Source: Thioalkalivibrio versutus (GTDB lineage Bacteria; Pseudomonadota; Gammaproteobacteria; Ectothiorhodospirales; Ectothiorhodospiraceae). From it: 64,000 nt of DNA. Every line of letters starts with the position of its first letter. Within the stretch, counting starts at the first letter, position 1. Location: positions 1 through 64,000 of the forward strand of contig NZ_MVAR01000031.1 of NCBI RefSeq assembly GCF_001999325.1. Direction: 5' to 3'. The notes under the pieces were generated by a model, which worked only from the letters and a program-made list of their open reading frames with translations, was not told the origin of the DNA and did not search any database. The position numbers were made by a program, and so were the translations under genes. Shown one piece after another: positions 44,298-61,334 of this stretch.

Positions 44298-45178
44298 ATG
44301 GAGTTCAGGATCGTGGGAGGGGCGGGGATTGCCCCCTATCTGGAGGATGTTGCACGCCTGCGCATCGCAGTCTTCCGCGAGTGGCCATATCTCTACGACG
44401 GGAGCGCGGAGTACGAAGAGCGGTATCTGCAGGACTACGTCGGCTGCCCGGACAGTACGCTGGTACTCGCGCTGGAAGGTGATCGCGTCGTGGGGGCCTC
44501 CACTGCGCTGCCGCTGGCTGCGGCCGAGGCGGAATTCCAGGCCCCGTTCCTTGAGCAAGGACTGGACCCGGCGGCGTATTACTACCTGGCGGAATCGGTA
44601 CTGGAGCCGGACTTCCGCGGCCAGGGAGACGCTGATTGAATCGCGCGCTCGCGCTCGAGTCGCTTTTGCGTGCGAACAAGGCGCGGCGACTGCCGTGCAG
44701 TCATTCTGCACAAGGGAGCCGCAACGCTGTTCGCGCGCCCGTTCTCGTCAACAACGGGCGGCCGAGCCCCTGCATTCAATCGCTTGTGGGGTTGGTGCCC
44801 CCTGTTCCCCGATCCTGCGTTGCGCCGCTTGCGGGTAGAACCACTACCCGCTGCACGACGCGCCTTGTCTCGGAAAACAGGGGGCACCAACGCGAGAGCG
44901 CGATTCAATCAGCGTCTCCCTCGGGGGCGGGGCATCGGTTCTTCGACGAGCGCGAGGCGGCAGCGCGGCGCCTGGGCTTTGCCCATGCCACCTTCTGCGC
45001 GGTGGTGCGCCCGGAGGATCACCCGCGACGCCCGGCCGGTTACCGGTCCCTGGACGGGTTCTGGAAAAAGCGCGGCTACCGGCGCGCCGAGGGGCGGGTT
45101 GGCCACTTCCCGTGGCCGGATATCGGCGAGAGGCAGGAGAGCCTCAAGCCATTGCAGTTCTGGTGGCGCCGGCTCTGA
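44298..45178 (+). pseudogene. GNAT acetyltransferase gene split by an inserted element
   Basis: The first part (44298 to about 44623) encodes an N-terminal GNAT region ending AESVLEPDFRGQG, the start of the acetyl-CoA binding motif. Reading then stops at a TGA inside the inserted element. The rest of the protein resumes after the element: GHRFFDEREAAARRLGF to the stop at 45178, including WKKRGYRR. Joining the two parts gives about 195-200 residues, a normal size for the family. The gene is therefore inactivated unless the element is removed. A purine-rich run precedes the ATG. Confidence 0.85.
44624..44920. mobile_element. MITE-like element with 30-bp terminal inverted repeats
   Basis: The 297-base insert ends in inverted repeats 44624-44653 and 44891-44920, identical at 29 of 30 positions (outer part GGGAGACGCTGATTGAATCG). 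Nested inside are a perfect 16-bp inverted repeat (44791-44806 with 44876-44891) and a 7-bp stem (44831-44837 with 44845-44851), so the right half is one large palindrome. It has no transposase gene and splits a GNAT gene. I see no clean target-site duplication. It fits a non-autonomous miniature element mobilised in trans. Confidence 0.82.
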
Positions 45179-45665: not shown

Positions 45666-46700
45666 TCAGTGCTTTTCGCGCAGGTACTGCGCCAGGGCGT
45701 CGGGCGAGCGTTCGTGGCCCGAGGGGAGGCTTCCCTCGGGGTCCCGCAGCCAGGCGGCGATGTCGTCGAACGTGGTCTCGGCCCCGGTATACCGGGTCAG
45801 CATGTGATAGCCCTCGGGGTAGAGCGCGGCCCGATGGTCATCGGATCCCTGGGCGGTCAGGGCCTCCAGCAGGCGCGCCAGGGGCAAGGATGGCACCAGA
45901 TCGTCGCGCGCTCCGTACAGCGTCAGGCTCGGTGGGGGCAGAGCCGGGCCCGCCTCCAGCGCGTGGGTCATCAGGGTGGTCAGGCCGTCCAGGGCATCGA
46001 TGCGGGCATCACGCAACACCAGCGGGTCGTCACGCATCTGTTGTAGCACCGCGGGATCATCGGTGGGATGGATGTCGAGGTCAGCGGCCATCTCGCCGTC
46101 CAGGCGCCAGCCGGGCGCCAGGCGCGCCCCGAGCCACAGGCCGAAGCGCTGATACCAGGGCATGTCGCCACGGCTCCAGACCGCCGGGGCGATCAGGACC
46201 GTGCCGGCGACCCGGGGCGATGCAGTGGCGGAATCGGTCGTTTCCTCCATGGCCAGAAGCGCGACAGCGCCGCCCATGCTCTTGCCGATGAGGTAGGGCG
46301 TCTGGTCGGGGTAGCGCTCTTGCAGCAGCCGGAGTGCGGTGCGGGCGTCCTCGGCCAGCAGTCGGTGACCGGACCAGTAGCCGGCGTTGCGCGTGGCTCC
46401 GAAGCCGCGCTGGTCATAGGCATACACCGCATTGGCGTGCCCGGCCAGCGCCTCGCCCAGCGCCTGCATGCTGCCACCGTGGTCGTTGAAGCCGTGCAGG
46501 GCCAGCACAACCCGCTCGGGGGTGTCCGGCCCCCAGCGGTGCAGCGGCAGCCGGTCGCCATCCGCCGTGTGGATCACCTCGGAGGCGATCAGCGGGGTGC
46601 GGGTCTCGTCACCGGACGGGCTGGGTACCGTCCCGGCACAGCCGGCGAGCGATAGCGCGAGTGTCGGCGCCAGCAGACGCAAGGCCCTGCTAACGAGCAT
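45666..46700 (-). CDS. Lipoprotein alpha/beta hydrolase (lysophospholipase-like)
   Basis: A 344-residue alpha/beta hydrolase with a lipoprotein signal: LSLAGC with the lipid-modified Cys21. The nucleophile elbow is GKSMGG, the oxyanion region LALHGFNDHGG, and the catalytic histidine is probably in EGYHMLTRY. It is most like monoacylglycerol lipase/lysophospholipase proteins; the substrate is unknown. The ATG at 46700 overlaps the 3' end of the Gcr-family gene by 11 bases, so the two are cotranscribed. Confidence 0.82.
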   Translation of the reverse strand: MLVSRALRLLAPTLALSLAGCAGTVPSPSGDETRTPLIASEVIHTADGDRLPLHRWGPDTPERVVLALHGFNDHGGSMQALGEALAGHANAVYAYDQRGFGATRNAGYWSGHRLLAEDARTALRLLQERYPDQTPYLIGKSMGGAVALLAMEETTDSATASPRVAGTVLIAPAVWSRGDMPWYQRFGLWLGARLAPGWRLDGEMAADLDIHPTDDPAVLQQMRDDPLVLRDARIDALDGLTTLMTHALEAGPALPPPSLTLYGARDDLVPSLPLARLLEALTAQGSDDHRAALYPEGYHMLTRYTGAETTFDDIAAWLRDPEGSLPSGHERSPDALAQYLREKH

Positions 46701-48711
46701 CGGACTCGTCGTCGCCTCCGTTGGTCGTGGTCTGCGCGCCGGGCGGGAACAGGAATTCGCCCGGACGTTCGCGCAGGTGGCGACCATAGGCGCGAACGAC
46801 GCGGCCAAAGGTCCCGATGCGCACGCCACGGGCGCGCAGCGCAACGTACAGCGCGAGCCCGAAGCTGACCCACAGGTTGACTGCCCCGATCAGCAGCACG
46901 AACACCAGAAACAGGACGAACATGCCCAGCCCGGGCGCTTCGCTGGCGGTGACATAGCCGAGGTTGGCCGAGGCAAAGGCGACGTGCTGGATGTCCAGTG
47001 GCAGGTTCAGCAGGTAGCCGACATATCCGGTCACTCCCAAAAGCACGCCGAACAGGAAGTTGCCGATCAGTGCACCGTAGTTGTGGCCGATCCAGTCGGC
47101 CAGGCGGTGGCGCGCCCCGGTCGGCAGCAACCGGCGCAGCAGCGGATGCTCGCGCAGGCGGCCGGGCAGGTCGAGGTAGGCGCAGCGGTTGTCGAAGAAG
47201 CCCGCAATCAGGCCGGAGACGAACAGCCAGACCCCGGCGATCGCGGCAAAGAATAGCGCCAGGCCCATGATCGGGTGCAGCCCGTCCACCAGGTAGTCGA
47301 CCTCGCGACCGGACAGGACCGGAGCGTTGAACAGACCCGCCGCAAACAGACCGATCAGGATGGCGGTCGGCAGCGCGATGCCCACGTTGCCGAGTACGGC
47401 GGCGAACTGCGAACGGCCCACCCGCATCAGGAGATCTGCCATGGTTCGTGGATCGGCTGTGCCGCGTTCGCTTTCTTCGATGGCGGCGGCCAGACGCGCG
47501 GCGGTCATTGCCGGCTGCTTGGTGGCCACGGTGAAATGCAGGATGTGGATCAGCACAAAGCCGAGGCCGTAGTTCAGGCTCACCCACAGGGTGTTGACCG
47601 CGTGGGACAGTCCCAGGGATTCGATCTGGATTTTGATCAGGGCCATGACCGCGATGATCAGCCCGGCGCCGGCTCCGGAGCGCAGCATCTGGAAGTATTC
47701 GCCGCGCGACTGCGTGATGTAGTGCTCGCCGGTGTCGCTGACTTGCTGGGTGATGCTGCGCGAGACCAGCTTGATGTTGTCCTGCCACAGCGCGCGTACG
47801 CCGTGCTGGCGGGCGCTGATGGTGATGAGTTCGCGGAACACCCCGACCGAGGCCGCGCGCGTGTCGCGGTCCGCGTCCGGCTCCAGCAGGTCCAGTAGCT
47901 TGTGAATGCGGCCGAGGGTCTGGTCCAGACGTTCCAGAAGGTGGGTGAGCGACAGGCTGTTGCCATGGGTGATGGCCAGCTGGCGCAGGCGCGCGATCTG
48001 CTCGCTGCACTGCTCCAGAAGCACCCGCGCGTGGCGGTCGTCCATGCGTTCGCGGTTGGGGTCCTCCAGGGTGGCGCGGTAGTCACGCACGTAGGCGGAG
48101 ATCTCGCGCTCCTGGGCGACAAAGGCCGAGTTGTGCTCGGCGATCGATGGGTCCAGGCGCAGCAGTTCCGGCTCCAGCTCCTCCGCGGCCACCCAGATCG
48201 ACAGCATCTCCAGGGCGTAGAGGATTTCTTCGCGTGCCCGTTGCAGGACCCCGGGGTGTTCCCCGGTCAGGCAGCCCAGGGCCTCCAGCAGGCGCCACCA
48301 GGCATCGTCCGGCAGGGCCGCAACCCAGGCGGCGTCATCGGTCTGGTGAAACACGTGATAAAGCACGTCTTTCAGGTCGCGCCGGTCCATCGGGCGCGGA
48401 TTGATCCGCTCGTAGATCAGCTCCGCGGCCTCGCGGAAGAAACCCTTGCGCGAGAACAGCCCGATCCCGGTGTACAGCGTCAGGTGCCGGGCGTCCTCCA
48501 GCCCGTCCTCCAGGCGCTCACGCAGCCGGTCCTGCAGGCGCGGGTTCTCGCCCAGGGCGAGGGTTAACTGCTCAATACGGGAGATCACCGGCGCGACATT
48601 GCGCGGGTCCTCCGGGCGCAGCCAGTCCACGAGCTGGCGCAGGGTCTCGGCCAGATCGAGATCGGCGTCTTCCACGCTGGCGAGGAGGTGTTCCGCATCC
48701 TTCTTCGGCAT
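46690..48711 (-). CDS. Gcr-family multi-pass membrane protein (annotated elsewhere as site-specific recombinase)
   Basis: A 673-residue protein of the Gcr/COG4389 family. The N-terminal ~330 residues are helical and soluble; the C-terminal half has about seven hydrophobic segments (starting AGAGLIIAVMALIKIQIE). No tyrosine or serine recombinase motif is visible, so the family's site-specific recombinase label is poorly supported by the sequence; a membrane function is more likely. The tail after the last helix is charged. It is cotranscribed with the lipoprotein hydrolase and divergent from csoS1D. Confidence 0.8.
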   Translation of the reverse strand: MPKKDAEHLLASVEDADLDLAETLRQLVDWLRPEDPRNVAPVISRIEQLTLALGENPRLQDRLRERLEDGLEDARHLTLYTGIGLFSRKGFFREAAELIYERINPRPMDRRDLKDVLYHVFHQTDDAAWVAALPDDAWWRLLEALGCLTGEHPGVLQRAREEILYALEMLSIWVAAEELEPELLRLDPSIAEHNSAFVAQEREISAYVRDYRATLEDPNRERMDDRHARVLLEQCSEQIARLRQLAITHGNSLSLTHLLERLDQTLGRIHKLLDLLEPDADRDTRAASVGVFRELITISARQHGVRALWQDNIKLVSRSITQQVSDTGEHYITQSRGEYFQMLRSGAGAGLIIAVMALIKIQIESLGLSHAVNTLWVSLNYGLGFVLIHILHFTVATKQPAMTAARLAAAIEESERGTADPRTMADLLMRVGRSQFAAVLGNVGIALPTAILIGLFAAGLFNAPVLSGREVDYLVDGLHPIMGLALFFAAIAGVWLFVSGLIAGFFDNRCAYLDLPGRLREHPLLRRLLPTGARHRLADWIGHNYGALIGNFLFGVLLGVTGYVGYLLNLPLDIQHVAFASANLGYVTASEAPGLGMFVLFLVFVLLIGAVNLWVSFGLALYVALRARGVRIGTFGRVVRAYGRHLRERPGEFLFPPGAQTTTNGGDDESDAR

Positions 48712-50166: not shown

Positions 50167-50244
50167 TCCTGCCCCGGCTTCGGCGCCTCCGTGCGCCGTT
50201 CCCGCGAACGCGAGTGGGCGCTATAGTCGCGGTCGGTTCCCTTG

Positions 50245-51534
50245 ATGGATGCCCGCGTGTCGATACGATCCCTGCCGCGTTTGGCCTTGCTGCTGTCTCT
50301 GCTTCTGCTGCTTCCGCCAGCGGGTGCCGGCGAGGTGGAATCGCACACCGTCACGGTGACCGATCCCGCTGGCGTGGACCTGGAGGTCACCGTGTACCCG
50401 GCCGCCGGCGATCGAGTCTACCTCTGGCTGCTGCCACAGGCGGGCGAACACGCCAACCATGCGCGCCTCGGCCGCGAGCTTGCTGCGATGGGTGTCGAGG
50501 TCTGGCAGGTCGATCTGCTGGATGCCCATTTCCTCCCGCGCACCAACGAGAGCATGCGCAGCCTGGATGGCGTCAGCGTAGCGGCGCTACTGCGCGCGGC
50601 GCACGAGCAGACCGGCAAGCAGGTGATGCTGGTGGCCTCGGGCCGCCCGGCGATCACCGCCCTGCGCGGCATGCGTCAGTGGCAGGAGGACGGCCCCGAA
50701 GAGGCTTACGTACTCGGTGCGGCGCTAGCCTTCCCCAACCTGATGGTCGACACGCCGGTGGCGGGTGCCCCCGCCGAGTTCGTCGATGTGGTGCGCGCCA
50801 CCAGTCTGCCGGTCTTCCTGCTGCAGCCCACCCAGGGCGTCTATCGCTGGCACCTGGACGACATCCTGGCCGACCTGCGCCGTGGTGGTAGTGCCGTGTT
50901 CGTGCAGACGGTCCCGCATGTGCGCGACTTTTATTACCTGCGCCGTTCCGATCCCGAGCCGGAGGAACAGGCCGCGGCCGAGCGCCTGCCTGCGCAACTG
51001 CTGCAGGCAGGCCGGCTACTGGCCAGCGTCCCGCGCCCGCTGGCGGCCGCGCCGCTGCCGGAGGCCATCCGTGCGATCGAAGTCGGCCGCGGGCTGGTGG
51101 AGCGTGATCGTCCACGGCCGGTCGCGGACTTCACGCTGACCGATCACCTGGGTGACGAGCAGTCGCTGTCCGATTACGACGGCCAGGTGGTGCTGCTGAA
51201 TTTCTGGGCCAGCTGGTGTCCGCCCTGCGTGCACGAGATCCCGTCGATGAACCGCATGGCCGAGACCCTGGGCGAGGGCTTCGCCATCGTATCGGTCAAT
51301 TATCAGGAAAGCGCCGAGCACATCACGGCCTTCATGCAAGAGGTGCAGGTGGATTTCCCGGTCCTGATGGACTTCGACGGACGAGTAGCTGCCGACTGGC
51401 GCGTTTTTGCCTTCCCCAGTTCGTTCATTCTCGACCGTGACGGCCGCGTCCGCTATTCGGTCAACAGCGCCATCGAATGGGACGACCCCGACGTCATTGC
51501 CACCGTCGAGGCCCTGATGGCGGAGCCGAAGTAG
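50245..51534 (+). CDS. Exported protein with hydrolase-like domain fused to TlpA-type thioredoxin domain, copy 1
   Basis: A 429-residue protein with a signal peptide (about 1-28) and two parts. Residues ~30-280 resemble a degenerate alpha/beta-hydrolase-like domain (VYLWLLPQAGEHANHARLG, then VMLVASGRPAIT where a serine elbow might be); residues ~290-425 are a TlpA/ResA thioredoxin domain with active site Cys325-Pro-Pro-Cys328 in WASWCPPC. It probably acts as a periplasmic thiol oxidoreductase. A paralogue lies at 59922-61226. The start may be this ATG or an adjacent TTG; the ribosome site is weak. Confidence 0.8.
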   Translation: MDARVSIRSLPRLALLLSLLLLLPPAGAGEVESHTVTVTDPAGVDLEVTVYPAAGDRVYLWLLPQAGEHANHARLGRELAAMGVEVWQVDLLDAHFLPRTNESMRSLDGVSVAALLRAAHEQTGKQVMLVASGRPAITALRGMRQWQEDGPEEAYVLGAALAFPNLMVDTPVAGAPAEFVDVVRATSLPVFLLQPTQGVYRWHLDDILADLRRGGSAVFVQTVPHVRDFYYLRRSDPEPEEQAAAERLPAQLLQAGRLLASVPRPLAAAPLPEAIRAIEVGRGLVERDRPRPVADFTLTDHLGDEQSLSDYDGQVVLLNFWASWCPPCVHEIPSMNRMAETLGEGFAIVSVNYQESAEHITAFMQEVQVDFPVLMDFDGRVAADWRVFAFPSSFILDRDGRVRYSVNSAIEWDDPDVIATVEALMAEPK

Positions 51535-51576
51535 CTGATTCGCTGCCTGGCGGAGTCACCGCCGATTCGCCACCCA

Positions 51577-51662
51577 TTCCGTCCTTGCGAGCACCGCGAA
51601 GTAATCGGGTGGGGCTGTGCCCTGGTCTGGCCGAGGGCTTCGCTGCGCTTGCAACGACGAGG
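51577..51662. repeat. Dispersed repeat, copy 2 (inverted pair)
   Basis: Two degenerate units of the interspersed repeat face each other: CGTCCTTGCGAGCACCGCG at about 51580 and, inverted, GCTTCGCTGCGCTTGCAACG at about 51638. Together they can form a long imperfect hairpin. The right unit continues into the direct repeat that flanks the pga operon. Confidence 0.55.
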
Positions 51663-51778
51663 CAGGCGTCCTCTCGGGTTAGCCGTCGGTCTCGCCCTCG
51701 ACCGTGGTCAGGCCGAAGGCGTGCCACATCTGCATGCCGCCGCGGTACCACTTGAGGCGCTCGGCCGGGTAGCCGAGG
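51631..51778. repeat. Left direct repeat flanking the pga operon
   Basis: This ~148-base segment matches 58301-58447 in the same orientation with a one-base length difference. The part 51688-51778 has only one mismatch in 91 bases. It joins a dispersed-repeat unit to a rhodanese gene 3' end. The matching right copy is the end of the intact rhodanese gene. Confidence 0.85.
51679..51778 (-). pseudogene. Rhodanese gene remnant (3' end only)
   Basis: On the minus strand this encodes the last ~33 residues of the rhodanese at 58348-59022: LGYPAERLKWYRGGMQMWHA and on to the stop TAA, with Leu for Ile at one position and a different last few residues. Everything upstream of this point (towards pgaA) is unrelated, so it is a truncated copy without start or catalytic cysteine. 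Confidence 0.88.
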
Positions 51779-51880
51779 AGGCCCCCGAATCGGCTTCCGG
51801 AAGGATTGTTAATATCCGGTCTCCTGCATGTTGTATGTGATAGCCTTCACAAAAATGAAAGGTCGCGGGTTAGGGGGCTG

Positions 51881-54358
51881 ATGGACAGGGGAGTGGAGTA
51901 TGACCGGGCGCGCATGCCCAGGGTCTTTGTCGGGAAGTGGGCACGGGTCACTTGCGGCGTTGTGCTGCCATGGATCCTGTCGGTCCCCGGCTACGCTGCA
52001 ACTCTGGACCAGGAGCGCGAACAGGCCGTTGCACTTGCCCAGGAAGGACGGGTGTTCGAGGCCGCCGAGCGCTTGCGTGCGCTGGAGGCCCGCTCCCCGA
52101 ATCAGCCCCGCCTGCAAGCGGACCTGATTGTTGTGTTGCGTCTGGTCGGGGATAACGCGGCGATCGTCTCTCGAACCCAGGACCTCGATCCCGAGTCCGT
52201 CCCGGACTATGCCCACATGAGCTGGGCCTTCGCCCTGCGTGACGAAGGCGAATTTGCGGCAGCGGCGGCTATCCTGCGCGACTCTAGGAAAAGGCTGGGT
52301 AGTTCCGCGCAGATCCTTTTCGCCGTGGCCAGCGCCGAGGCAGGTGATGCAGCAACGGCGCGCCAGGCCCTTGCGGAAATCGACCCCTTGCCCGAATCGG
52401 TTCAGGAGCTGGCTCTGATGGCGTATGGCTTGCGCCAGTCGGATACACCGCGTCAGGCCCTGGCAATGGCCAATCGTGCGCGCGCCCGCGATCCGCAGCA
52501 TCCTCTGGCTTTTCAGGAGCAGACACTGGCCTTGTGGACGCTTGGGGCCAGCAACCGGGCGTTTGCCGCGATGCAGGAACGCCCGGACCTGTTCGAGGTC
52601 GATGTTCGCTATCAGGCCGAGGCGGATGCGATCGCGGCGGATATCCGGCAGGCACTGGATATCCGCTCCAAGCTGGAGGCCGAAGGCCGCCACGAAGAGC
52701 GGGACCGGGAGCTGAATCGGGTCCTGGCCAGCGCGGACGAATTTCTTTCGCGCATCCCGGAGGCGCATCCGCAGCATTTGCGGGTCCGTTTCGATCGAAT
52801 CGCCTTGTTGCGGGAACTCGAGCGAATGCCGGAGACGGTTGCGGCGTTCGAGGCACTACCGGAGCGCACAATCGCCCCGGCCTATGTGCGTCGAGCGGCG
52901 GCCGATGCCTACCTGGCTGAAGAGCAGCCCGAAACGGCCCTGCCCCTGTACGAGTCCCTGGTTCCGGAGGACGAGCCGCCGGAGGTCTCGTTGCTGCTGG
53001 ACCTCTATTACACGCACATCGCGCTCGAGGAATATTCCGCGGCGGCGGATCTGCTTGAGCGCGCCCAGCGCCACACGCCGGTCTGGCTGGATATCGATCC
53101 GGATCGTGATCCGATCCCCAACTGGGAGCGGGTCGACGTCGATCAGCTTCGGGTGTATGACGCGGCCTATCGCCAGGATCTCGATCGAGCCTGGGAACGC
53201 AGTGGAGAACTGGTCCGCCAGGCTCCGGCCCACGCCGGCCTGCGGAACACCCAGGCGCGCATGGCTCGCTGGCGCGGCTGGCCGGCGCGCTCGCGGGACA
53301 TCACCGAAGTGGCGGAGCGCTGGGCGCCCGATGCACGGGATACGCGACTCAATCGGGCGGAGAATGCGCGCGACCTGGGCGAGCACGACACCTGGGTCCG
53401 GGAAGTCGAGTCCCTGCGGGCCGATTATCCCCGCAGTACGGATGTTCAGCGCCTGTCCGAAGAGCTGGAAGACCGTGGCCGCCCCTCCATCGAGAGCGAG
53501 GTCGTTTTTGGCCGGACATCGGGTGGCGAAGGGCTGGTAAGCGGTGATCGCGACCGGGAATGGCGTACCCGACTGAATTCGCCCTGGTCCGATCATCCAC
53601 TTCGGGCCTTTCTGGAACATCGCTACACCACGGCGTCATTCGGCGATATCGATGGACGCTATGACCGCATTGGTGCGGGCATCGAGTGGGACGCGCGGCG
53701 CCAGCAGGCCTGGTTGCGCTTCGATCGTGATCTCAAGGGGGATGCCAATCCCGGGATCGCGGCCGGATGGTCGCGGTGGCTCGGTGACCACTGGCGGATC
53801 GGCGTCGAAGCGGACAGCTACTCGATGGAGACGCCCTTGCGGGCGATCGATGCGGGTCTGAAAGGCTGGTCGGCCTCGGCTTCCGTGGACTGGCGGGCCC
53901 ACGAATCCCTTTCGGCGTATGCCAACGTGGGCCTGTTGTCGATTGATGACGGCAATCGCCGGAGCTCGCTGGGCGGGGGCGTCACACGACGAGTGTATGC
54001 CAGTGCCCACCACACGACCGATGTGGGCGCCGATTTCTTTTTCCAGAACAACAGCCAGCCGGGCGGACCCTATTTCAACCCGGAGCAGTCGGCCAGCACC
54101 TCCGTTCGGGTGGACCACGACTGGATTACCTGGCGTGACTACGACCGGGCCTTTACGCAACATTTTCACGCCGCGGTCGGTACGGGCTACCAGTCCGGGT
54201 TTGGCAGTGACCCGACGGTGGCGCTGCGCTACGAGCATCGCTGGGATCTGGATCGTCGCTGGTCCGTCGACTACGGCCTCGGCTGGGGTTCCACCACCTA
54301 CGATGGTGACCGGGAAGACCGGCTGTTCGGGCTTGTGCGCCTGCGAGGGACCTTCTGA
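51881..54358 (+). CDS. pgaA: Poly-beta-1,6-GlcNAc export porin PgaA
   Basis: PgaA is the outer-membrane porin that exports deacetylated poly-N-acetylglucosamine. The 825-residue protein has a signal peptide (about 12-40), an N-terminal TPR superhelix (about 45-500), and a C-terminal beta-barrel (about 540-825) of alternating strands that ends in Phe (RLRGTF), the usual outer-membrane signature. AGGGGG precedes the chosen ATG; ATG 51914 (MPRVFVGKW) is an alternative that begins directly at the signal peptide. The pgaB ATG overlaps the stop. Its upstream gap (51535-51880) holds the repeat and the rhodanese remnant. Confidence 0.87.
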   Translation: MDRGVEYDRARMPRVFVGKWARVTCGVVLPWILSVPGYAATLDQEREQAVALAQEGRVFEAAERLRALEARSPNQPRLQADLIVVLRLVGDNAAIVSRTQDLDPESVPDYAHMSWAFALRDEGEFAAAAAILRDSRKRLGSSAQILFAVASAEAGDAATARQALAEIDPLPESVQELALMAYGLRQSDTPRQALAMANRARARDPQHPLAFQEQTLALWTLGASNRAFAAMQERPDLFEVDVRYQAEADAIAADIRQALDIRSKLEAEGRHEERDRELNRVLASADEFLSRIPEAHPQHLRVRFDRIALLRELERMPETVAAFEALPERTIAPAYVRRAAADAYLAEEQPETALPLYESLVPEDEPPEVSLLLDLYYTHIALEEYSAAADLLERAQRHTPVWLDIDPDRDPIPNWERVDVDQLRVYDAAYRQDLDRAWERSGELVRQAPAHAGLRNTQARMARWRGWPARSRDITEVAERWAPDARDTRLNRAENARDLGEHDTWVREVESLRADYPRSTDVQRLSEELEDRGRPSIESEVVFGRTSGGEGLVSGDRDREWRTRLNSPWSDHPLRAFLEHRYTTASFGDIDGRYDRIGAGIEWDARRQQAWLRFDRDLKGDANPGIAAGWSRWLGDHWRIGVEADSYSMETPLRAIDAGLKGWSASASVDWRAHESLSAYANVGLLSIDDGNRRSSLGGGVTRRVYASAHHTTDVGADFFFQNNSQPGGPYFNPEQSASTSVRVDHDWITWRDYDRAFTQHFHAAVGTGYQSGFGSDPTVALRYEHRWDLDRRWSVDYGLGWGSTTYDGDREDRLFGLVRLRGTF

Positions 54359-56412
54359 TGCGTCGTCTTATGATCATCCTGCTGATGCTTGCGGGGGTAT
54401 CGCATGGCCTAGTGCATGCGCAGGACGCCTTCACCATCCCGGATGGGCACTTCCTCGCGCTTTCCTATCACGATGTACGCGACGACGTGCAGCCGGGGAG
54501 GGATGCGGACCCGTACGCCGTCAGCACGCAGCGGCTGGTGGAATGGTTTGACTGGATGGAGCGGCAGGGGTGGCGGCCGGTTTCGTTGCAGCAGATCGTT
54601 GATGCCCGCGAGGGAAGGGAGCCGCTGCCGGCCAATGCGGTGCTGCTGACCTTCGATGATGGTCTGGCCAGTGTCTACAGCCACGTGTTCCCGTTGTTGC
54701 AGGCCTATGAGTATCCGGCGCTGGTCGCGCTGCAGACCGGTTGGTTGGAGACCGTCTGGGCGGGCGAGGATGTCACCTACAACCCCGAGACATTCGCGGA
54801 TGTCGCGAGCCCCGAGCCGGCAGCGGATCAGCCCCCGCCCGGGACCGTCACGTACAACGAAGCGCCGCTCGGAGCCGAGGGCTTTCTGGCGCTGTCCGAG
54901 TTGCGCGAGATGCAGGCATCGGGGCTGGTGGAATTCGCCAGTCACAGTCACGACCTGCATCGCGGCATCCTGGCCAACCCGCAGGGGAACGAGCAGCCAG
55001 CGGCCATTACGCGTCGTTATGACCCGGAAATCGGCCGTTACGAGGACCACGACACATTCCGTCAGCGGATCCTCGATGACATGCGGGCCAGCAATGCCTC
55101 GCTGGAGGCGATGGTAGGTGTTGCGCCGCGCGCCATCGTCTGGCCCTACGGCGCTCACAGTGCGGAGGTGGACGCACTGGCGACGGAGGCCGGGATGCCC
55201 TGGTCGATCTCGCTAGGCGCGGACCCGGTCAACCACCCGGAACAAGCGCGGGTCAACCGCTTGCTGATCAGTGGAGATCCGCGGCCGGTACAGATTGCGC
55301 AGAGCGCGCGTCCCGAATCCGCGACACGTGCGACATCGCCGCAGCCACAGCGGGTGGTCCATGTGGATCTTGACTACGTCTACGATCCCGATCCGGAGCA
55401 GACCAATCGCAATCTCGGTGTACTCCTGGACCGCATCCAACGGATGCAGGTCCGCACGGTCTACCTGCAAGCCTTTGCCGACCCGAACGGTGATGGCAAC
55501 GCGGATGCGTTGTACTTTCCGAATCGGCACCTGCCCGTGCGTGCCGACCTGTTCAATCGCGTCGCCTGGCAGCTGCGGACGCGGGCCGGCGTGCGCGTGT
55601 ATGCCTGGATGCCACTGCTCTCCTTTGATCTGCCCGATCAGGACCTCCATGCCGAACTGTCGGTGCAGCGGCCCGGGCCCGAAGGTGCCCCCGTGCCGGC
55701 GGATCGTGACTATCGCCGCCTGAGTCCGTTTCTTCCTCAGTCCCTGGAGATTGTCGGCGAGATCTACGAGGACCTCGGGATGGCGGCAAGCGGTATTGCC
55801 GGGGTGTTGATCCACGACGACGCCTACCTGGCAGCCGACGAGGACCTGGCGGCCTGTCAGGACGGAGCGCGCTGGCCCGGAACGGACCGCCCGCTCTCGG
55901 ATTGCACTCTGCGGCCGGAGGAGAAGACCCAGGCCCTGATCGATTTCGGGGAAGAGGTGATCGGCCGGCTGCGCTATTTCACCAATCTGTCTCTCGAATT
56001 TCGCACCGCGCGCAACCTGTATGCGCGGGTGATTCTCGAACCGGAAGCCGAGGAGCGGTTCGCCCAGGCGCTGCCCGCTGCGGTCGAGGCATACGACGAG
56101 GTCGCCATCATGGCCATGCCCTGGCTGGACGGGACCGAGCTTCCGCCGGATGTCTGGCTGGCCCGACTCGCGGATGCGGTGGACGAGCAGATCGGGGGCT
56201 TCGAGGACGTTGTATTCGAGTTGCAGGCGCGTGACTGGCGAGGCGAAGGCCGCTGGCTGGAAGCGACGCTCTTGCGCGACTGGATGGAGCAGCTTGTGCG
56301 GCGCGGGGTGCTGAACTTCGGGTACTACCCGGACGACTTCCTGCGGGATCAGCCGGAATTCGGCCCCACGTTCGAGGGCATGTCTCTGAATGCCTTCCCT
56401 CATCCGCGATAG
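54358..56412 (+). CDS. pgaB: Poly-beta-1,6-GlcNAc N-deacetylase PgaB
   Basis: PgaB partly deacetylates the polymer in the periplasm and its C-terminal domain cleaves it. The 684-residue protein has a signal peptide (1-21, HAQDA end) without a lipobox cysteine, unlike lipoprotein E. coli PgaB. The deacetylase domain (about 30-310) has YHD, TFDDG (Asp100-Asp101) and SHSHDLH (His196, His201). The hydrolase-like domain (about 335-670) has HDDAYL, with Asp487 as the likely catalytic residue by analogy. It overlaps pgaA (TGATG). Confidence 0.92.
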   Translation: MRRLMIILLMLAGVSHGLVHAQDAFTIPDGHFLALSYHDVRDDVQPGRDADPYAVSTQRLVEWFDWMERQGWRPVSLQQIVDAREGREPLPANAVLLTFDDGLASVYSHVFPLLQAYEYPALVALQTGWLETVWAGEDVTYNPETFADVASPEPAADQPPPGTVTYNEAPLGAEGFLALSELREMQASGLVEFASHSHDLHRGILANPQGNEQPAAITRRYDPEIGRYEDHDTFRQRILDDMRASNASLEAMVGVAPRAIVWPYGAHSAEVDALATEAGMPWSISLGADPVNHPEQARVNRLLISGDPRPVQIAQSARPESATRATSPQPQRVVHVDLDYVYDPDPEQTNRNLGVLLDRIQRMQVRTVYLQAFADPNGDGNADALYFPNRHLPVRADLFNRVAWQLRTRAGVRVYAWMPLLSFDLPDQDLHAELSVQRPGPEGAPVPADRDYRRLSPFLPQSLEIVGEIYEDLGMAASGIAGVLIHDDAYLAADEDLAACQDGARWPGTDRPLSDCTLRPEEKTQALIDFGEEVIGRLRYFTNLSLEFRTARNLYARVILEPEAEERFAQALPAAVEAYDEVAIMAMPWLDGTELPPDVWLARLADAVDEQIGGFEDVVFELQARDWRGEGRWLEATLLRDWMEQLVRRGVLNFGYYPDDFLRDQPEFGPTFEGMSLNAFPHPR

Positions 56413-56421
56413 GGAGTCGGC

Positions 56422-57684
56422 ATGACCTTCAACGCCCTGACCAATTTTGCCTTCTTCTACCCGCTAATCATGGCCTGGGTCTGGATCATTGGGGGCGTCT
56501 GGTATTACCTCCGCTGGGAGCGCCGCAAGGGGGCCGATCCCGATCATCCGCCCGACAGTGGCAGTCTGGCTGCGTGCAGCATCATCATTCCTTGCTTCAA
56601 CGAGGCAGAGGTGATTCGCGACACGATCCATTACGCCCATGCGAGCGAGTACCACGACTTCGAGATCATCGCCGTCAACGATGGCAGCAGCGATGCAAGC
56701 CCCGAGATTCTCGAACAATTGACTCACGAGTATCCCCGTCTGCGCGTGGTGCACCTGGCCAGCAATCAGGGCAAGGCCGTTGCCCTGCGGACCGGGGCAC
56801 TGGCGGCGCAGAACGACTTTCTGATCTGCATCGACGGCGACGCGTTGCTGCATCCGAACGCCGTGGCCTGGATGATGTTCCACCTGACTTCGGGTCCCCG
56901 AGTGGGCGCCGTTACCGGTAACCCGCGCATCGTCAATCGCAGCAGCCTGCTGGGCAAGCTTCAGGTTGGGGAGTTCTCGGCCACTATCGGTCTGATCAAG
57001 CGCGCCCAGCGAGTCTACGGGCGCATATTCACCGTCTCGGGCGTGATCGCGGGTTTTCGTCGCACGGCCCTCGATCGGGTCGGGTACTGGAGCAGCGACA
57101 TGGTCACCGAGGACATCGATATCTCCTGGCGGCTCCAGCTCGACCACTGGGACATACGATACGAGCCCAATGCGCTGTCTTACATCTACATGCCGGAGAC
57201 TCTGGCAGGACTTTGGCGTCAGCGCCTGCGCTGGGCTCAAGGGGGGGTGGAGACGGTGCTCCGCCACGGCGCCAGTCTGTTCCATTGGCCCAAGCGGCGG
57301 CTATGGGGCGTGGCCCTCGAGTATGGGGTCAGTATCGTCTGGGCCTACGTCATGTTTGTCATCATCCTTGTGGCCTTTCTGGGTCTGGTGATCGAGCTTC
57401 CGGAAGGCTGGATCCAGCCGGGGCTGCTGCCGCAATGGGCGGGCGTAATTCTCGGACTGACCGCGCTGATGCAGTTCCTCGTCAGTTTGATGATTGATCG
57501 TCGCTACGAGGTCGATGGCCGGTTTTTCCGCAATTATTTCTGGGTGATCTGGTATCCACTGGCGTTCTGGCTGTTGTCCATGGTCACCACGGTCGTGGCG
57601 GTCCCGCGCGCCCTTCTCAAGCGTTCCGGAGAGCGTGCTCGATGGATCAGCCCGGATCGCGGGCTGCGGCCCCCGGAAGAATGA
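56422..57684 (+). CDS. pgaC: Poly-beta-1,6-GlcNAc synthase PgaC
   Basis: PgaC is the processive family 2 glycosyltransferase that polymerises UDP-GlcNAc and extrudes the chain. The 420-residue protein has an N-terminal membrane helix, a GT-A domain with NDGSSD, CIDGDA and TEDIDISW (catalytic base Asp231), the QRLRW motif (Gln267-Trp271) typical of processive synthases, and C-terminal membrane helices. In E. coli it is activated by c-di-GMP together with PgaD. pgaD begins five bases after the stop. Confidence 0.94.
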   Translation: MTFNALTNFAFFYPLIMAWVWIIGGVWYYLRWERRKGADPDHPPDSGSLAACSIIIPCFNEAEVIRDTIHYAHASEYHDFEIIAVNDGSSDASPEILEQLTHEYPRLRVVHLASNQGKAVALRTGALAAQNDFLICIDGDALLHPNAVAWMMFHLTSGPRVGAVTGNPRIVNRSSLLGKLQVGEFSATIGLIKRAQRVYGRIFTVSGVIAGFRRTALDRVGYWSSDMVTEDIDISWRLQLDHWDIRYEPNALSYIYMPETLAGLWRQRLRWAQGGVETVLRHGASLFHWPKRRLWGVALEYGVSIVWAYVMFVIILVAFLGLVIELPEGWIQPGLLPQWAGVILGLTALMQFLVSLMIDRRYEVDGRFFRNYFWVIWYPLAFWLLSMVTTVVAVPRALLKRSGERARWISPDRGLRPPEE

Positions 57685-57688
57685 GCCC

Positions 57689-58234
57689 ATGAAGCACTTG
57701 CGACCGCGTGTTCCCAAAATGATCGACCGCTCGGATCTGGAGCCGAGTAGAAAGCGCTATATCAGTCAGTTGGTCAGTCTTGTTGGATGGGGCATCTGGA
57801 TCTACCTGTTCACACCCCTGATCGCATTGGTCGGGTGGGCGCTGGGCGTGGAGTTGTTCGAGCGCTACATCCTGGATGACCCCATGGGCACGTTGCGGGC
57901 AATTCAAACGTACGCCATCGCGATTGTCTCGGCGGGCGCGATCTTCATAGGGTGGGCCGGTTACAACTGGTTCCGCTTTCACAACAAGGAACGTCGGCGC
58001 GCACCGGAACCGGTCGGGACCGAGGAGTTGGCCCGGCATTTCGGCATCGATCGTGACGAGGCCGAGATTATCGCAACGGCTCGCATTGTGACGGTTCATT
58101 TTGATGAGACCGCACGGATCGTCGATGTCCAGACCATGGTTCCGCGAGCTCCATCGGAGCTCGCAGGCGATTCCGACGAATCCAGTGACTCTGATCCGCC
58201 GGCGGACCCGAATGGGGAGCGCCGCTACGGCTGA
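57689..58234 (+). CDS. pgaD: Poly-beta-1,6-GlcNAc biosynthesis protein PgaD
   Basis: PgaD is the small inner-membrane partner of PgaC; in E. coli the pair binds c-di-GMP at their interface. The 181-residue protein has two membrane helices (about 38-60 and 80-103) and the WGIWIYLFTPLI sequence typical of the family. It is longer than E. coli PgaD, with a soluble C-terminal region and a Asp/Ser/Pro-rich acidic tail. GGAAGA precedes the ATG. It ends the operon. Confidence 0.85.
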   Translation: MKHLRPRVPKMIDRSDLEPSRKRYISQLVSLVGWGIWIYLFTPLIALVGWALGVELFERYILDDPMGTLRAIQTYAIAIVSAGAIFIGWAGYNWFRFHNKERRRAPEPVGTEELARHFGIDRDEAEIIATARIVTVHFDETARIVDVQTMVPRAPSELAGDSDESSDSDPPADPNGERRYG

Positions 58235-58300
58235 CTGGCGGTGGTTTCTTTGTACGCCCGTTATTGGTTGGCCTTGCCGCCCGCGGGGTTACCTACACGC

Positions 58301-58447
58301 CGGATTGCTTCGCAGCGCTCGCAATGACGAGATGGACGCCAAGCGGGCTAGTCGCTGGTCTCGCCCTCGACCGTGGTCAGGCCGAAGGCGTGCCACATCT
58401 GCATGCCGCCGCGGTACCACTTGATGCGCTCGGCCGGGTAGCCGAGG
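58301..58447. repeat. Right direct repeat flanking the pga operon, with dispersed repeat copy 3
   Basis: This is the partner of 51631-51778. It contains GGATTGCTTCGCAGCGCTCG then CAATGACGAG, a near-canonical unit of the dispersed repeat, followed by the last 100 bases of the intact rhodanese gene. Confidence 0.85.
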
Positions 58448-59022
58448 TTGGTCAGGGTGCGGATGTTGGTGGGTGACTGGCCGCACCAGGGGCCGTTGCA
58501 GAACAGCACCAGGGTCTTCGCCCGGCTGAAGTCGTAGAAGTCGCCGTCGAAGATTGCGCCGAAGTCTTCGGTCAGCACGTTGCGCACGTCGTCCGGGTCC
58601 GCGCCGGAGGCGAAGTGCAGGCGGTCCCAGGGGATGTTGACGGCGCCGGGGATGGTGCCGCGGCGGTATTCGCGCGGGGTGCGCGAATCGATGATCACCA
58701 GGTCGTCGCGCTCCGTGGTCTGCTGGAGGTAGTCGATGAACTCCAGTTCGCCCAGGGTCTCGACGCCGCGGCCAAGGCTCATCGGCTGGATGCAGAATGG
58801 CGGGCAGGGCCGCGCGATCTGTGCGTAGTCGAGGTCGATGGTCGCGAAGGTGTCCTGGTCGCGGGCTACCGTCACGGTCTCGTTGCCGTGGCGCACGTCG
58901 AATGCGGCCATGTCGGCGGTGATGCCGACCTCCGTTTCCGCGAATGCCGGAGCGGTCAGGAACAGGACCGCCGCTGCGAGCAGGCTCGATCGCACTTTTC
59001 GTGCGCTAAAGGGTGCTTTCAT
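58348..59022 (-). CDS. Exported rhodanese-like protein
   Basis: A 224-residue protein with a signal peptide (about 1-28, ending AFA) and one rhodanese domain (about 100-215). The active-site loop is CNGPWCGQ with Cys175 as the likely sulfur acceptor and Cys180 nearby. A CPPFC pair near residue 73 may form a disulfide or bind metal. Aspartate in IIDSRTPREYRRGT is the family CH2-type motif. It probably handles sulfane sulfur in the periplasm. The frame is open far upstream, but this ATG matches a signal peptide and has GGAG upstream. Its 3' end is duplicated at 51679-51778. Confidence 0.85.
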   Translation of the reverse strand: MKAPFSARKVRSSLLAAAVLFLTAPAFAETEVGITADMAAFDVRHGNETVTVARDQDTFATIDLDYAQIARPCPPFCIQPMSLGRGVETLGELEFIDYLQQTTERDDLVIIDSRTPREYRRGTIPGAVNIPWDRLHFASGADPDDVRNVLTEDFGAIFDGDFYDFSRAKTLVLFCNGPWCGQSPTNIRTLTNLGYPAERIKWYRGGMQMWHAFGLTTVEGETSD

Positions 59023-59283
59023 GGGGGGAGTCTCCGCTACGTCTCTCATACGTCGAACGTAGTCTCGAACTGCGGCGCTTGCGCGAAATAACGCCTGCCC
59101 GCGTGGGCATTTCCTGACCCGGCACGGTCCTGCACGAGGGGGCGCGCGATCCATCAGGCGGGGGGTGACCGATGATGTACGGACGCCTCGGTATTCGGGG
59201 AGTCGTGCAGGTCTGGTAGGGTGCGCGCTCGTTTGCGCGGGGCAGGTGCGCGCAGGATTGCGTCCAGAGGAAGGAAGGTGTTT

Positions 59284-59886
59284 GTGTTGCGAGGAATGCG
59301 TACGTTTTGGGTGGCCGGCATTGCGCTGGTGGCCACCGGATGTTCCATCACCCAGTCGATTGAGCCACTGGATGCGGTGGATGTCAGCCTGGTCTGCGTG
59401 CTCGACAACCCCGAGATCCACATGGCTGGATTTCAGCCCGAGATGCGCGAACTGATCGAGCAGCGAGGTATCCGCACGGACGTCTATTCCGGTTCCCGCC
59501 CTGCACGGTGTTCGCATTACCTGGAACACACCGCGAACTGGAAGTGGGATCTGGCAATGTACCTCTCGTACGCCGATCTTCGCGTCTATGACGCCCAGGG
59601 CCTGGCGGGGCAGGCCACCTACGATGCCCGCAGCGGTAGCGGGCGGATGGACAAGTTCGGGCCGACCCGAGAGAAGCTGGCGCCGCTCGTGGACGAGCTG
59701 TTCGCGCAAGTGAATGCCGTGGAGTTGATCCGCGGAGGTGAACAGGCGGATCAGGGACGCGATGAAGACTCCGACGGCCGTTCGGTCGAGGCGCGACTGG
59801 AAGAGCTGGATCGCTTGCACGACCGGGGGCTGATTACCGAAGCGGCCTACGAGGAGCGCCTGCGCGCCATCCTGGCGGATCTTTAG
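59284..59886 (+). CDS. Sbal_3080-family-like lipoprotein with C-terminal SHOCT domain
   Basis: A 200-residue putative lipoprotein: signal ending VATGC with lipid-modified Cys20 counted from the GTG start. The middle contains NWKWDLAMYLSYADLRVY, typical of Sbal_3080 family lipoproteins. The last 34 residues (RLEELDRLHDRGLITEAAY...) are a SHOCT-type short C-terminal domain. I chose the GTG at 59284 because AGAGGAAGGAAG lies just upstream; the ATG at 59296 (MRTFWVAG) is also possible. The function is unknown. Confidence 0.72.
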   Translation: MLRGMRTFWVAGIALVATGCSITQSIEPLDAVDVSLVCVLDNPEIHMAGFQPEMRELIEQRGIRTDVYSGSRPARCSHYLEHTANWKWDLAMYLSYADLRVYDAQGLAGQATYDARSGSGRMDKFGPTREKLAPLVDELFAQVNAVELIRGGEQADQGRDEDSDGRSVEARLEELDRLHDRGLITEAAYEERLRAILADL

Positions 59887-59921: not shown

Positions 59922-61226
59922 CTACGCGTCTTCGTCCAGCAGGTCGCGGATCTGGTCGATCACGCCGGGTTCGGTCCATTCGATGGCGCCGAACAGGTAG
60001 TAGCGCAGGCGGCCCTTGCGGTCGACGACGTAGCTGGTGGGGTAGGCCATCGCGCGCCAGTCGTCGAGGGAGTCCTGTTCCGGATCGAGGAGGATGGTGA
60101 ACTCGGTCTGCACCTCGTCCTCGATGAAGCGTTGGATGGTGTCCTCGTCCTCGCCCAGGTTCACCGCCAGGATGCGAAAGCCTTCGTCGCGCAGTTCGTC
60201 CTCCAGCAGTTGCATGGACGGCATCTCGTGCACGCAGGGCGGGCACCAGCTGGCCCAGAAATTGATCAGCACCACCTCGCCGCGATAGTCCTCCAGTCGA
60301 TGGATATCCCCCGCCAGGTCGGGCCGCTCCAGCGGCGGGGCCGCCACGGGTTCATCCAGGGCGTTGAGCTGTGCGTCGGTGCCGCTTGGGGTGCGTACTG
60401 CCAGGTCCGTGTCCGGTCCGGCCACGGCGGGTGTGCGTTGATGAGGCAGCCGCGTCAGCAGTTCCAAGGCGAAGATGATTTCGCGGTGGAAGGTCTCGCT
60501 GGCGAGTCGCTCGGCTTCGGTCGCATCGGGGCGGAAGAAGAAGCGGTCGCGGATCCCGGGAAGCAGGCGCGCCCCCACTGCACTGCCGCCCTCGGTCAGC
60601 CCGCTGCGAATCCGCCCGAGATGCTGGCGCTGGGGCGACTGGGCCGGTTGCAGGATGTACACCGGCAGATTGGTCAGCCGGACGATGGGTTGTAGTTCGG
60701 CCTCATCGGTATCCACGCCGGTATGCAGGAAGGGGCTGGTCATCAGCAGTCCGGCCAGGTAGTCCGCCTCGGGGTGGGCTTGTTGCCACTGGTACAGGCC
60801 GGTGAGCAGCCAGGGCAGGGCACGGTCATGCCCGAAGGCATAGACCGGTCGTCCGGTATCGGTGTGGGTTGCCTCGATCAGGTCCGTCACCGTGGCGGTG
60901 GGCATGTCGTCGAAGCTGGATGCCGCCTCGGGCAGGAAGTGGCCGGTGAACGGATCGGCCAGCCAGGTCTCGACCCCGGCCGCCTGCAGCGCCAGCGCCT
61001 GTTGTCGATGGCCGTCCTGCAGGCCGTGTTCGGAGGGGAACCACAAAAGCACGGCGTCGCCATCGGCGCGATAGCGTTCCACCGGGATCTCGGCCCCGCC
61101 GGCCTCGATCGAAGCGGCGGCGTCGACTGCGCCCGTCGGGCCGTTCGCCTCCTGCGCCAGTGCGGCGAACGGGATCATCAGCAGGGCCGCGAGGGCAAAC
61201 AGGCGTACGAGAATACGGTGTGTCAT
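59922..61226 (-). CDS. Exported protein with hydrolase-like domain fused to TlpA-type thioredoxin domain, copy 2
   Basis: A 434-residue paralogue of the protein at 50245. It has a signal peptide (about 1-25), an alpha/beta-hydrolase-like region (VLLWFPSEHGLQDGHRQQA, VYAFGHDRALPWLL) and a C-terminal TlpA domain with Cys328-Pro-Pro-Cys331 in INFWASWCPPCVHEMPSM. It is likely a periplasmic thiol oxidoreductase. AAGG precedes the ATG. The two copies lie on either side of the pga island but in opposite orientations. Confidence 0.8.
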   Translation of the reverse strand: MTHRILVRLFALAALLMIPFAALAQEANGPTGAVDAAASIEAGGAEIPVERYRADGDAVLLWFPSEHGLQDGHRQQALALQAAGVETWLADPFTGHFLPEAASSFDDMPTATVTDLIEATHTDTGRPVYAFGHDRALPWLLTGLYQWQQAHPEADYLAGLLMTSPFLHTGVDTDEAELQPIVRLTNLPVYILQPAQSPQRQHLGRIRSGLTEGGSAVGARLLPGIRDRFFFRPDATEAERLASETFHREIIFALELLTRLPHQRTPAVAGPDTDLAVRTPSGTDAQLNALDEPVAAPPLERPDLAGDIHRLEDYRGEVVLINFWASWCPPCVHEMPSMQLLEDELRDEGFRILAVNLGEDEDTIQRFIEDEVQTEFTILLDPEQDSLDDWRAMAYPTSYVVDRKGRLRYYLFGAIEWTEPGVIDQIRDLLDEDA

Positions 61227-61334
61227 GGAAACCTTGGTGAAGGGGCTCGGGAATAGACGCGCGAGAGCTTGATATTGCTCCACGGATCTCCTGCAGGGTG
61301 TCAGGATTGTGTTCGCAGTCGGGGATTCCGGTCC

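What the first reader, a model, noticed from the sequence alone, without database searches (positions are those of the whole stretch)
51631..58447. pga biofilm operon bracketed by direct repeats of a rhodanese 3' end
Two ~147-base direct repeats bound exactly pgaABCD. The left one is a rhodanese fragment, the right one belongs to an intact rhodanese gene. This is the signature expected if a circular DNA carrying pgaABCD and a rhodanese 3' end integrated by single crossover into the chromosomal rhodanese gene. It would also imply the island could excise by recombination between the repeats. The repeats and truncation are seen directly; the mechanism is inferred.
Basis: partly seen in the sequence, partly recalled or inferred. 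Interest (0 to 1): 0.7.

Follow-up and report, generated by a model that had tools for sequence, protein, structure and literature searches.

The report
Biofilm operon inserted by ordinary recombination
In a soda-lake sulfur bacterium, a four-gene biofilm operon sits inside a duplicated end of a neighbouring gene, the scar expected when DNA from a related bacterium is spliced in by the cell's ordinary recombination machinery; a neat natural example of a known process rather than a new kind of element.

Summary
A 100-base rhodanese 3' end (51679-51778) repeats the end of the intact rhodanese gene (58348-58447) at 95/100, plus a weaker non-coding part (35/50); pgaABCD lies between. The genus is Thioalkalivibrio. 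Four congeners (G002, G010, G004, G024) have the unoccupied site, rhodanese directly beside the same neighbour gene. Cutting pga and one repeat out of the window gives a contiguous match to three of them. The left fragment carries the site's native downstream DNA; the right copy's differs. So pga entered an existing rhodanese locus. New here: congener G021 has pga at the same place without the left repeat, so the donor was probably a congener in which pga already adjoined rhodanese, explaining the rhodanese end on the incoming DNA. One difference in 91 bases suggests a recent event. The closest precedent is single-crossover integration of recircularised linear DNA in E. coli, with 109-950 bp duplications (PMC3240628): a circle is plausible but need not be a plasmid. 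One-sided linear integration, and an older repeat-bounded island lost in several species, are not excluded. No mobility gene was seen between the repeats.

The parts
50242..51534 (+). left neighbour gene (thioredoxin/AhpC-TSA-fold protein, 'trxL'); directly beside the rhodanese 3' end in unoccupied sites
   Evidence: Pfam AhpC-TSA; synteny in G002, G010, G004, G024
51535..51678 (.). native rhodanese downstream region with degenerate REP-like halves, still attached to the left fragment
   Evidence: aligns to the downstream regions of G002 and G010: scores 125 and 133.5 against null maxima 42 and 49.5, 0 of 500 single-base shuffles each (sequences)
51679..51778 (-). left repeat: rhodanese 3' end fragment (last 32 codons and TAA stop), no 5' part
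51779..51880 (.). pgaA upstream region, about 82 nt of it shared with G021, ending at the left joint
   Evidence: score 53.5 against null maximum 37.5, 0 of 500 shuffles
51881..54358 (+). pgaA, PNAG export porin
   Evidence: PF21197 E 6.7e-49; TIGR03939 490.8 bits, cut-off 366.65
54358..56412 (+). pgaB, PNAG deacetylase / glycoside hydrolase
   Evidence: PF14883, PF01522; TIGR03938 709.2 bits, cut-off 321.9
56422..57684 (+). pgaC, PNAG synthase
   Evidence: TIGR03937 582.7 bits, cut-off 422.3
57689..58234 (+). pgaD
   Evidence: PF13994; TIGR03940 103.6 bits, cut-off 31.45
58235..58347 (.). region between pgaD and the rhodanese stop; inferred to be incoming DNA; starts (from the rhodanese side) with a diverged form of the rhodanese tail and one REP-like half
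   Evidence: 35/50 to the left tail; scores 66 to G010, 51.5 to G002 and 41 to G021 tails, each above its null maximum (43, 43, 36.5); REP pattern at 58303-58328
58348..58447 (-). right repeat: 3' end of the intact rhodanese gene
58348..59022 (-). intact rhodanese-domain gene
   Evidence: PF00581 E 5.2e-14; 92% identical protein in G002
59922..61283 (-). right neighbour gene 'trxR', a relative of trxL
   Evidence: same Pfam domains; trxL and trxR proteins hit each other's copies in relatives at about 35-39% over the long matches

Best explanation
pgaABCD entered this lineage recently by RecA-type homologous recombination anchored in the last ~100 bp of the rhodanese gene. The incoming DNA came from another Thioalkalivibrio in which pga already lay between rhodanese and trxL, as in G021, and so carried a rhodanese 3' end plus pgaDCBA. 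Its two ends became joined (circularised, by end-joining or at a short match), and one crossover with the resident rhodanese gene placed the whole segment. The crossover left the resident 3' end and its downstream DNA on the far side of pga as a fragment, and gave the intact gene the donor's last codons and downstream DNA. Shown: the repeats, the unoccupied sites, which tail is native, the G021 arrangement, and that the nearest sampled relative (G002) lacks pga. Inferred: the donor, the circular intermediate, RecA and the date.
For: Unoccupied sites with rhodanese beside trxL in G002, G010, G004 and G024. Joining the window's flanks at the repeat gives an intact 224-aa rhodanese frame and aligns to G002 at 1036/1169 with 34 gap columns; a control join that drops the left copy instead scores lower, by a modest margin, in 3 of 3 comparisons (G002 1825.5 against 1792.0; G010 1646.5 against 1618.5; G004 1383.5 against 1337.5; G024, with an element in the gap, was not compared). 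The left tail is native; the right tail is a different, diverged one. Informative sites follow G002 rather than G021 upstream of the rhodanese gene (95 against 3) and through gene positions 201-575 (35 against 4), less clearly at 1-200 (36 against 13), are mixed in the last 97 nt (6 against 4), and turn to G021 from about 50 nt after the stop (18 against 5) (on the alignment). G021 carries pga at the same place with about 82 nt of shared pgaA upstream DNA and no left repeat found by tblastn. G000 and G002 are sisters at 100/100 in rpoB and in the left-flank tree, and G021 is outside that pair. The 91-nt repeat has 1 difference, against 5 to G002 and 7 to G021 for the intact copy; a neutral fragment as old as the G000-G002 split would be expected to show about 9 (P(<=1) 0.001). 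Laboratory precedent: of 60 Lac- E. coli clones, 56 gave the PCR product diagnostic of a duplication, and 14 sequenced ones had duplications of 109-950 bp, ascribed to a single crossover of a circular molecule, most likely recircularised (PMC3240628, abstract and passages seen). ComEC and DprA homologues are present, weak support since most control genomes have matches too.
Against: No held genome has a pga closer to G000 than G021's; pga differs from G021 by dS 0.48-0.61, the same as the flanking genes (0.41-0.60), which vertical inheritance from a shared ancestor would also give. The right tail, inferred to be the donor's, scores higher against the native tails of G010 (66) and G002 (51.5) than against G021's (41), though this rests largely on a dispersed REP-like half. 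In a strict single crossover the two repeats compare donor with resident at every base, so species-level divergence (5-10 differences in 91) might be expected rather than 1; a short conversion tract has to be assumed. A faint collinear match to the fragment in G021 could mean the repeat is older. The left joint is seen in one draft assembly only.
Confidence: 0.5

Rival explanations
1. One-sided integration of linear DNA: homologous recombination at the rhodanese 3' end on one side and illegitimate joining at a short match (CCTCGG...TACCCGGC) on the other, without a circle.
For: The left joint lies at a short match that also stands in G021 upstream of pgaA at a collinear offset (102 and 105 nt from pgaA; 4 of 20000 shuffles reach the score of the joint 16-mer; chosen after seeing it). 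In most cases of homology-facilitated illegitimate recombination a 3-10 bp match is at the joint (PMC3240628, passage), and such a process was proposed for remnants in Vibrio T6SS arrays (PMC5361080, passages seen).
Against: That process generally deletes resident DNA of a size like the insert (PMC3240628); here resident DNA is duplicated and only small gaps (34 gap columns in 1169, both directions counted) separate the joined flanks from G002.
Confidence: 0.15
2. The repeat-bounded pga island is old, present in the ancestor of G000 and G021, and has been lost precisely by recombination between the repeats in G002, G010 and G004; G021 lost its left repeat and is locked in; the G000 repeats are kept alike by gene conversion.
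For: pga dS between G000 and G021 equals flank dS. The unoccupied sites of G002 and G010 carry the native tail, as excision would leave. Faint fragment trace in G021.
Against: Needs at least three losses on the left-flank tree against two gains, and conversion to keep 91 nt at 1 difference (about 23 expected if neutral since the G021 split).
Confidence: 0.22
3. Integrase-mediated island using the rhodanese 3' end as attachment site, with the integrase gene since lost.
For: Many islands replace a gene's 3' end and leave it as a repeat (recalled, no call).
Against: The genes between the repeats are the four pga genes (overlapping antisense ORFs not scanned). The PF10136 'site-specific recombinase' at 46690-48711 has relatives in 8 of the 16 fetched stretches, 7 of them without pga. 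The G021 insertion has no repeat pair.
Confidence: 0.03
4. In-place rearrangement: pga was already beside rhodanese, and recombination with a pga-less allele or a local duplication later copied the rhodanese end and native tail to the other side.
For: Would explain the near-identical coding repeat with ordinary species-level pga divergence.
Against: The two tails differ at 15 of 50 positions, so this is no simple tandem duplication; needs an extra step.
Confidence: 0.1

Closest known systems
Single-crossover (Campbell-type) integration of recircularised linear DNA, as in E. coli (Amarir-Bouhram et al. 2011, PMC3240628; abstract and passages seen)
   Same: Partial duplication of the anchoring gene's end flanks the insert; duplication size (100-150 bp) is at the low end of the 109-950 bp reported
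   Different: There it was selected in the laboratory with a marker; here it is a natural four-gene operon, inferred to be from a congener
Homology-facilitated illegitimate recombination (HFIR)
   Same: Homologous anchor at one side, possibly a short match at the other
   Different: HFIR generally deletes resident DNA; here there is a duplication
Displaced remnants of Vibrio T6SS effector modules (PMC5361080; passages seen)
   Same: A piece of the resident locus remains behind newly inserted genes
   Different: There the resident effector is replaced and arrays build up; here the gene stays intact
pgaABCD operons
   Same: All four genes, in the order A-B-C-D
   Different: Location only, as far as tested

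Membership tests
pgaABCD (PNAG) operon | PgaA, PgaB, PgaC and PgaD homologues in one operon over curated cut-offs | tested here: met
pgaABCD (PNAG) operon | makes PNAG | not testable with these tools
   sequence only
Single-crossover integration product | direct repeat of the homologous segment on both sides, one intact gene and one fragment | tested here: met
Single-crossover integration product | far-side fragment carries resident downstream DNA | tested here: met
   125 and 133.5 against null maxima 42 and 49.5, 0 of 500 each
Single-crossover integration product | reconstituted gene carries incoming downstream DNA | tested here: inconclusive
   the right tail differs from the resident one (35/50) and turns G021-like ~50 nt after the stop (18 sites against 5), but as a whole aligns better to G010 and G002 tails than to G021's
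Single-crossover integration product | unoccupied site in relatives | tested here: met
   G002, G010, G004, G024; joined flanks against three of them
Single-crossover integration product | circular intermediate | not testable with these tools
   no reads or PCR
Homology-facilitated illegitimate recombination | short match at the illegitimate joint | tested here: inconclusive
   G021 match collinear, 4 of 20000 shuffles for the joint 16-mer and 5 of 300 for any 16-mer, post hoc; over the whole region 14 of 500 shuffles do as well
Homology-facilitated illegitimate recombination | deletion of resident DNA at the insertion, of a size like the insert | tested here: not met
   joined flanks match G002 with 34 gap columns in 1169
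Integrase-type genomic island | integrase or transposase in the island | tested here: not met
   the four genes between the repeats are pga genes; overlapping antisense ORFs were not scanned

The most novel reading that the evidence does not exclude
The repeat-bounded pga segment is a cassette without a recombinase that moves among Thioalkalivibrio species: recombination between the rhodanese repeats releases a circle, and the same 100 bp re-inserts it at the rhodanese 3' end of another strain, so that biofilm capacity is gained and lost precisely at one place.
Probability: 0.12. Interest if true: 0.5.

Novelty: new member of a known kind. Interest (0 to 1): 0.27.

Why it matters
It is a clean natural case in which the unoccupied site, the inserted form with the repeat, and an inserted form without it are all present in sequenced congeners. 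It suggests how a complete operon can be added, without sizeable loss of resident DNA and without a mobile element, using only ~100 bp of homology at a gene end. If the segment excises, it would be a reversible biofilm trait.

Tried and rejected
Integrase island: the genes between the repeats are the four pga genes, and the nearby PF10136 'site-specific recombinase' has relatives in 8 of the 16 fetched stretches, 7 of them without pga. Base composition as evidence of foreignness: pga GC3 is 0.71-0.78 against 0.82-0.90 for most flanking genes, but the SHOCT-domain gene at 59221-59886, also present in pga-less G002, has 0.74, and pga in G021 is the same (0.72-0.78), so it does not date the insertion. 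Plasmid origin: PgaC in the plasmid collection is at best 62% identical (76 records at E <= 1e-40; the top three records are 3.7-4.1 Mb long and look like chromosomes); Thioalkalivibrio is not among the ten organism names shown, six further names were not shown, and records very near the window's genome may be left out. A remnant of the left repeat in G021 over its whole length: 14 of 500 shuffles do as well; only the 16-base stretch at the joint stands out. The first rpoB tree used wrong reading frames for some rows and was replaced, which uses 19 of the 28 genomes with an rpoB match (G003, G006, G008, G013, G014, G016, G017, G019 and G027 were left out; none of them has PgaB). A mismatch count against relatives was off by one base and was replaced. 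The rpoB tree does not resolve G021, G010, G004 and G024; the right-flank tree resolves only G000+G002. A direct comparison of the two trx proteins printed nothing and was not repeated. Literature: listings only; Thioalkalivibrio with pga/PNAG terms listed 6 of 1,041 papers, none of the six with Thioalkalivibrio; a find in PMC5345834 showed no 'pga' and no 'biofilm'. I saw no earlier account of this locus, which is no proof of absence.
Full report
WHAT IS THERE. The window lies on contig 31 (90,119 bp) of a 2.83 Mb genome and carries pgaABCD at 51881-58234 on the + strand, all four passing curated cut-offs. To its right, on the - strand, is an intact gene with a rhodanese domain (58348-59022). 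To its left is a fragment of that gene's 3' end (51679-51778, last 32 codons and stop): 95 of 100 bases identical, one difference in the 91 bases farthest from the stop, followed outwards by about 50 nt of non-coding DNA at 35/50. The alignment of the two regions is far beyond shuffled sequence (117.5 against at most 38 in 200 single-base shuffles). A search of the own genome with the rhodanese protein returned only the gene and this fragment at E <= 0.001.

THE GENUS. PgaB is found in 3 of 30 held genomes of the genus at E <= 1e-30 (own, G021, G007; 3 of the 23 that are at least 90% complete) and in 5 of 47 of the family at E <= 1e-60. G007's copy is distant (PgaB 59% identity), and of the window's neighbour genes only a GGDEF match lies near it. 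The two copies in another genus of the family (G031, G034) are at a third place, beside an aminotransferase gene. PgaC-like proteins at 63% and 51% also occur in two genomes of other families (G044, G043).

UNOCCUPIED SITES. I fetched 16 stretches and mapped the window's neighbour genes. In G002, G010, G004 and G024 the rhodanese gene lies directly beside trxL (the 50242-51534 orthologue), convergent, with no pga; in G024 a MITE-like element fills part of the gap. G026 and G001 have rhodanese without pga in altered neighbourhoods. In G021 pga lies between rhodanese and trxL as in the window, but tblastn found no left rhodanese fragment. Joining the window's flanks at the repeat gives an intact 224-codon rhodanese and a contiguous match to G002 (1036/1169, 34 gap columns), scoring modestly better than a control join in G002, G010 and G004.

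WHICH COPY IS NATIVE. The DNA after the left fragment's stop codon matches the DNA after the rhodanese stop in G002 and G010 (scores 125 and 133.5; null maxima 42 and 49.5; 0 of 500 single-base shuffles each) and leads into trxL. The DNA after the intact gene's stop is different: its first ~50 nt are a diverged version of the same kind of tail with one REP-like half (66 against G010, 51.5 against G002, 41 against G021; null maxima 43, 43, 36.5), and it then leads to pgaD. It resembles the G010 and G002 tails more than G021's, which does not favour G021 itself as source; much of this rests on the REP-like half, of which the genome has 8 copies with up to 3 mismatches. Informative sites: upstream of the rhodanese gene 95 follow G002 and 3 follow G021; positions 1-200, 36 and 13; 201-575, 35 and 4; 576-672, 6 and 4; the next 50 nt, 7 and 2; beyond, 18 follow G021 and 5 follow G002. 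So the far-side fragment kept the resident tail, and the intact gene is resident-like until near or just past its stop and then joins pga-linked DNA. This is the polarity that a crossover near the 3' end predicts.

SOURCE AND AGE. G000 and G002 are sisters (100/100 in rpoB and in the left flank; 99/99 in the right flank), and G021 falls outside that pair (its place is unresolved in rpoB, and with G004 at 91/95 in the left flank). The fewest changes of pga presence on the 19-row rpoB tree is 3. pga dS between G000 and G021 (0.48-0.61) equals flank dS (0.41-0.60), so G021 itself is not a recent donor; an unsampled congener of that radiation, or shared descent, both fit. The repeat's single difference in 91 nt argues for a recent event: about 9 neutral changes would be expected since the G000-G002 split (P(<=1) = 0.001) and about 23 since the G021 split, taking rounded dS values of 0.20 and 0.50 and ignoring gene conversion. 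The stretch is short and conserved, so this is suggestive only. Both G000 copies share ACGGTC near the end, where G002 and G010 have ATCGTT and ATTGTT; this is compatible with a short donor tract in both copies but weak.

THE LEFT JOINT. G000 and G021 share about 82 nt of pgaA upstream DNA (53.5 against a null maximum of 37.5, 0 of 500). At the G000 joint, and at a collinear place in G021 (102 and 105 nt from pgaA), stands TCCTCGG(C)TACCCGGC, the bracketed base missing in G021. Of 20000 approximately dinucleotide-preserving shuffles of the G021 region, 4 reach the score of the 16-mer at the joint; of 300, 5 reach it for some 16-mer of the fragment and tail (tested after noticing it). Over the whole fragment and tail, 14 of 500 shuffles do as well. 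It may be the short match at which ends were joined, or the last trace of an older repeat in G021. I cannot tell.

MECHANISM. I favour a single crossover by a circularised fragment of congener DNA. In E. coli, linear DNA with homology at one end mostly gave duplications of part of the anchor gene (56 of 60 clones by PCR; 109-950 bp in 14 sequenced), ascribed to a single crossover of a circular, most likely recircularised, molecule, while 4 of 60 appeared to be true HFIR (PMC3240628, abstract and passages seen). The Vibrio T6SS remnants for which an HFIR-like process was proposed (PMC5361080, passages seen) are a field analogue. ComEC and DprA homologues exist, but most control genomes have matches too. 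No integrase or transposase was seen among the genes between the repeats. Excision by the same repeats is possible in principle and untested.

VERDICT. This is an ordinary process with an unusually readable scar.

Noticed in passing
44624-44920: A ~300-nt MITE-like element with inverted ends (GGAGACGCTGATTGAATCGC); 15 end matches in the genome with up to 3 mismatches, 0 in reversed controls, among them five inverted pairs with starts 247-276 nt apart. Several relatives carry copies at other places, one within the rhodanese-trxL gap of G024.
   Followed up: partly
L062 16249-16541: In G021 the trxL gene is interrupted by a copy of the same MITE-like element (match 16265-16515).
   Followed up: partly
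58303-58328 and dispersed: REP-like element GTCATTGCGAGCG(N)AGCGAAGCAATC, 8 copies with up to 3 mismatches in the genome, 0 in reversed controls; a half of it follows the rhodanese stop in both G000 copies, degenerate on the left.
   Followed up: partly
50242-51534 and 59922-61283: Two related thioredoxin-fold proteins (about 35-39% identity between one protein and relatives' copies of the other), each with a long N-terminal part without Pfam match, stand on either side of the rhodanese gene in G002, G010, G004, G024 and here.
   Followed up: no
L076 7726-7824: In G029 only a C-terminal stretch of the rhodanese (residues 189-221, 61%) was found, beside the PF10136 gene, so this gene end is left behind in another lineage too.
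   Followed up: no
L072 10173-11434: pgaC of G034 (other genus) is split over two reading frames, while pgaA, pgaB and pgaD are each matched in one piece.
   Followed up: no
46690-48711: A protein matching PF10136 over nearly its whole length ('site-specific recombinase', 776 bits); relatives in 8 of 16 fetched stretches, 7 without pga. Its true role is uncertain.
   Followed up: no
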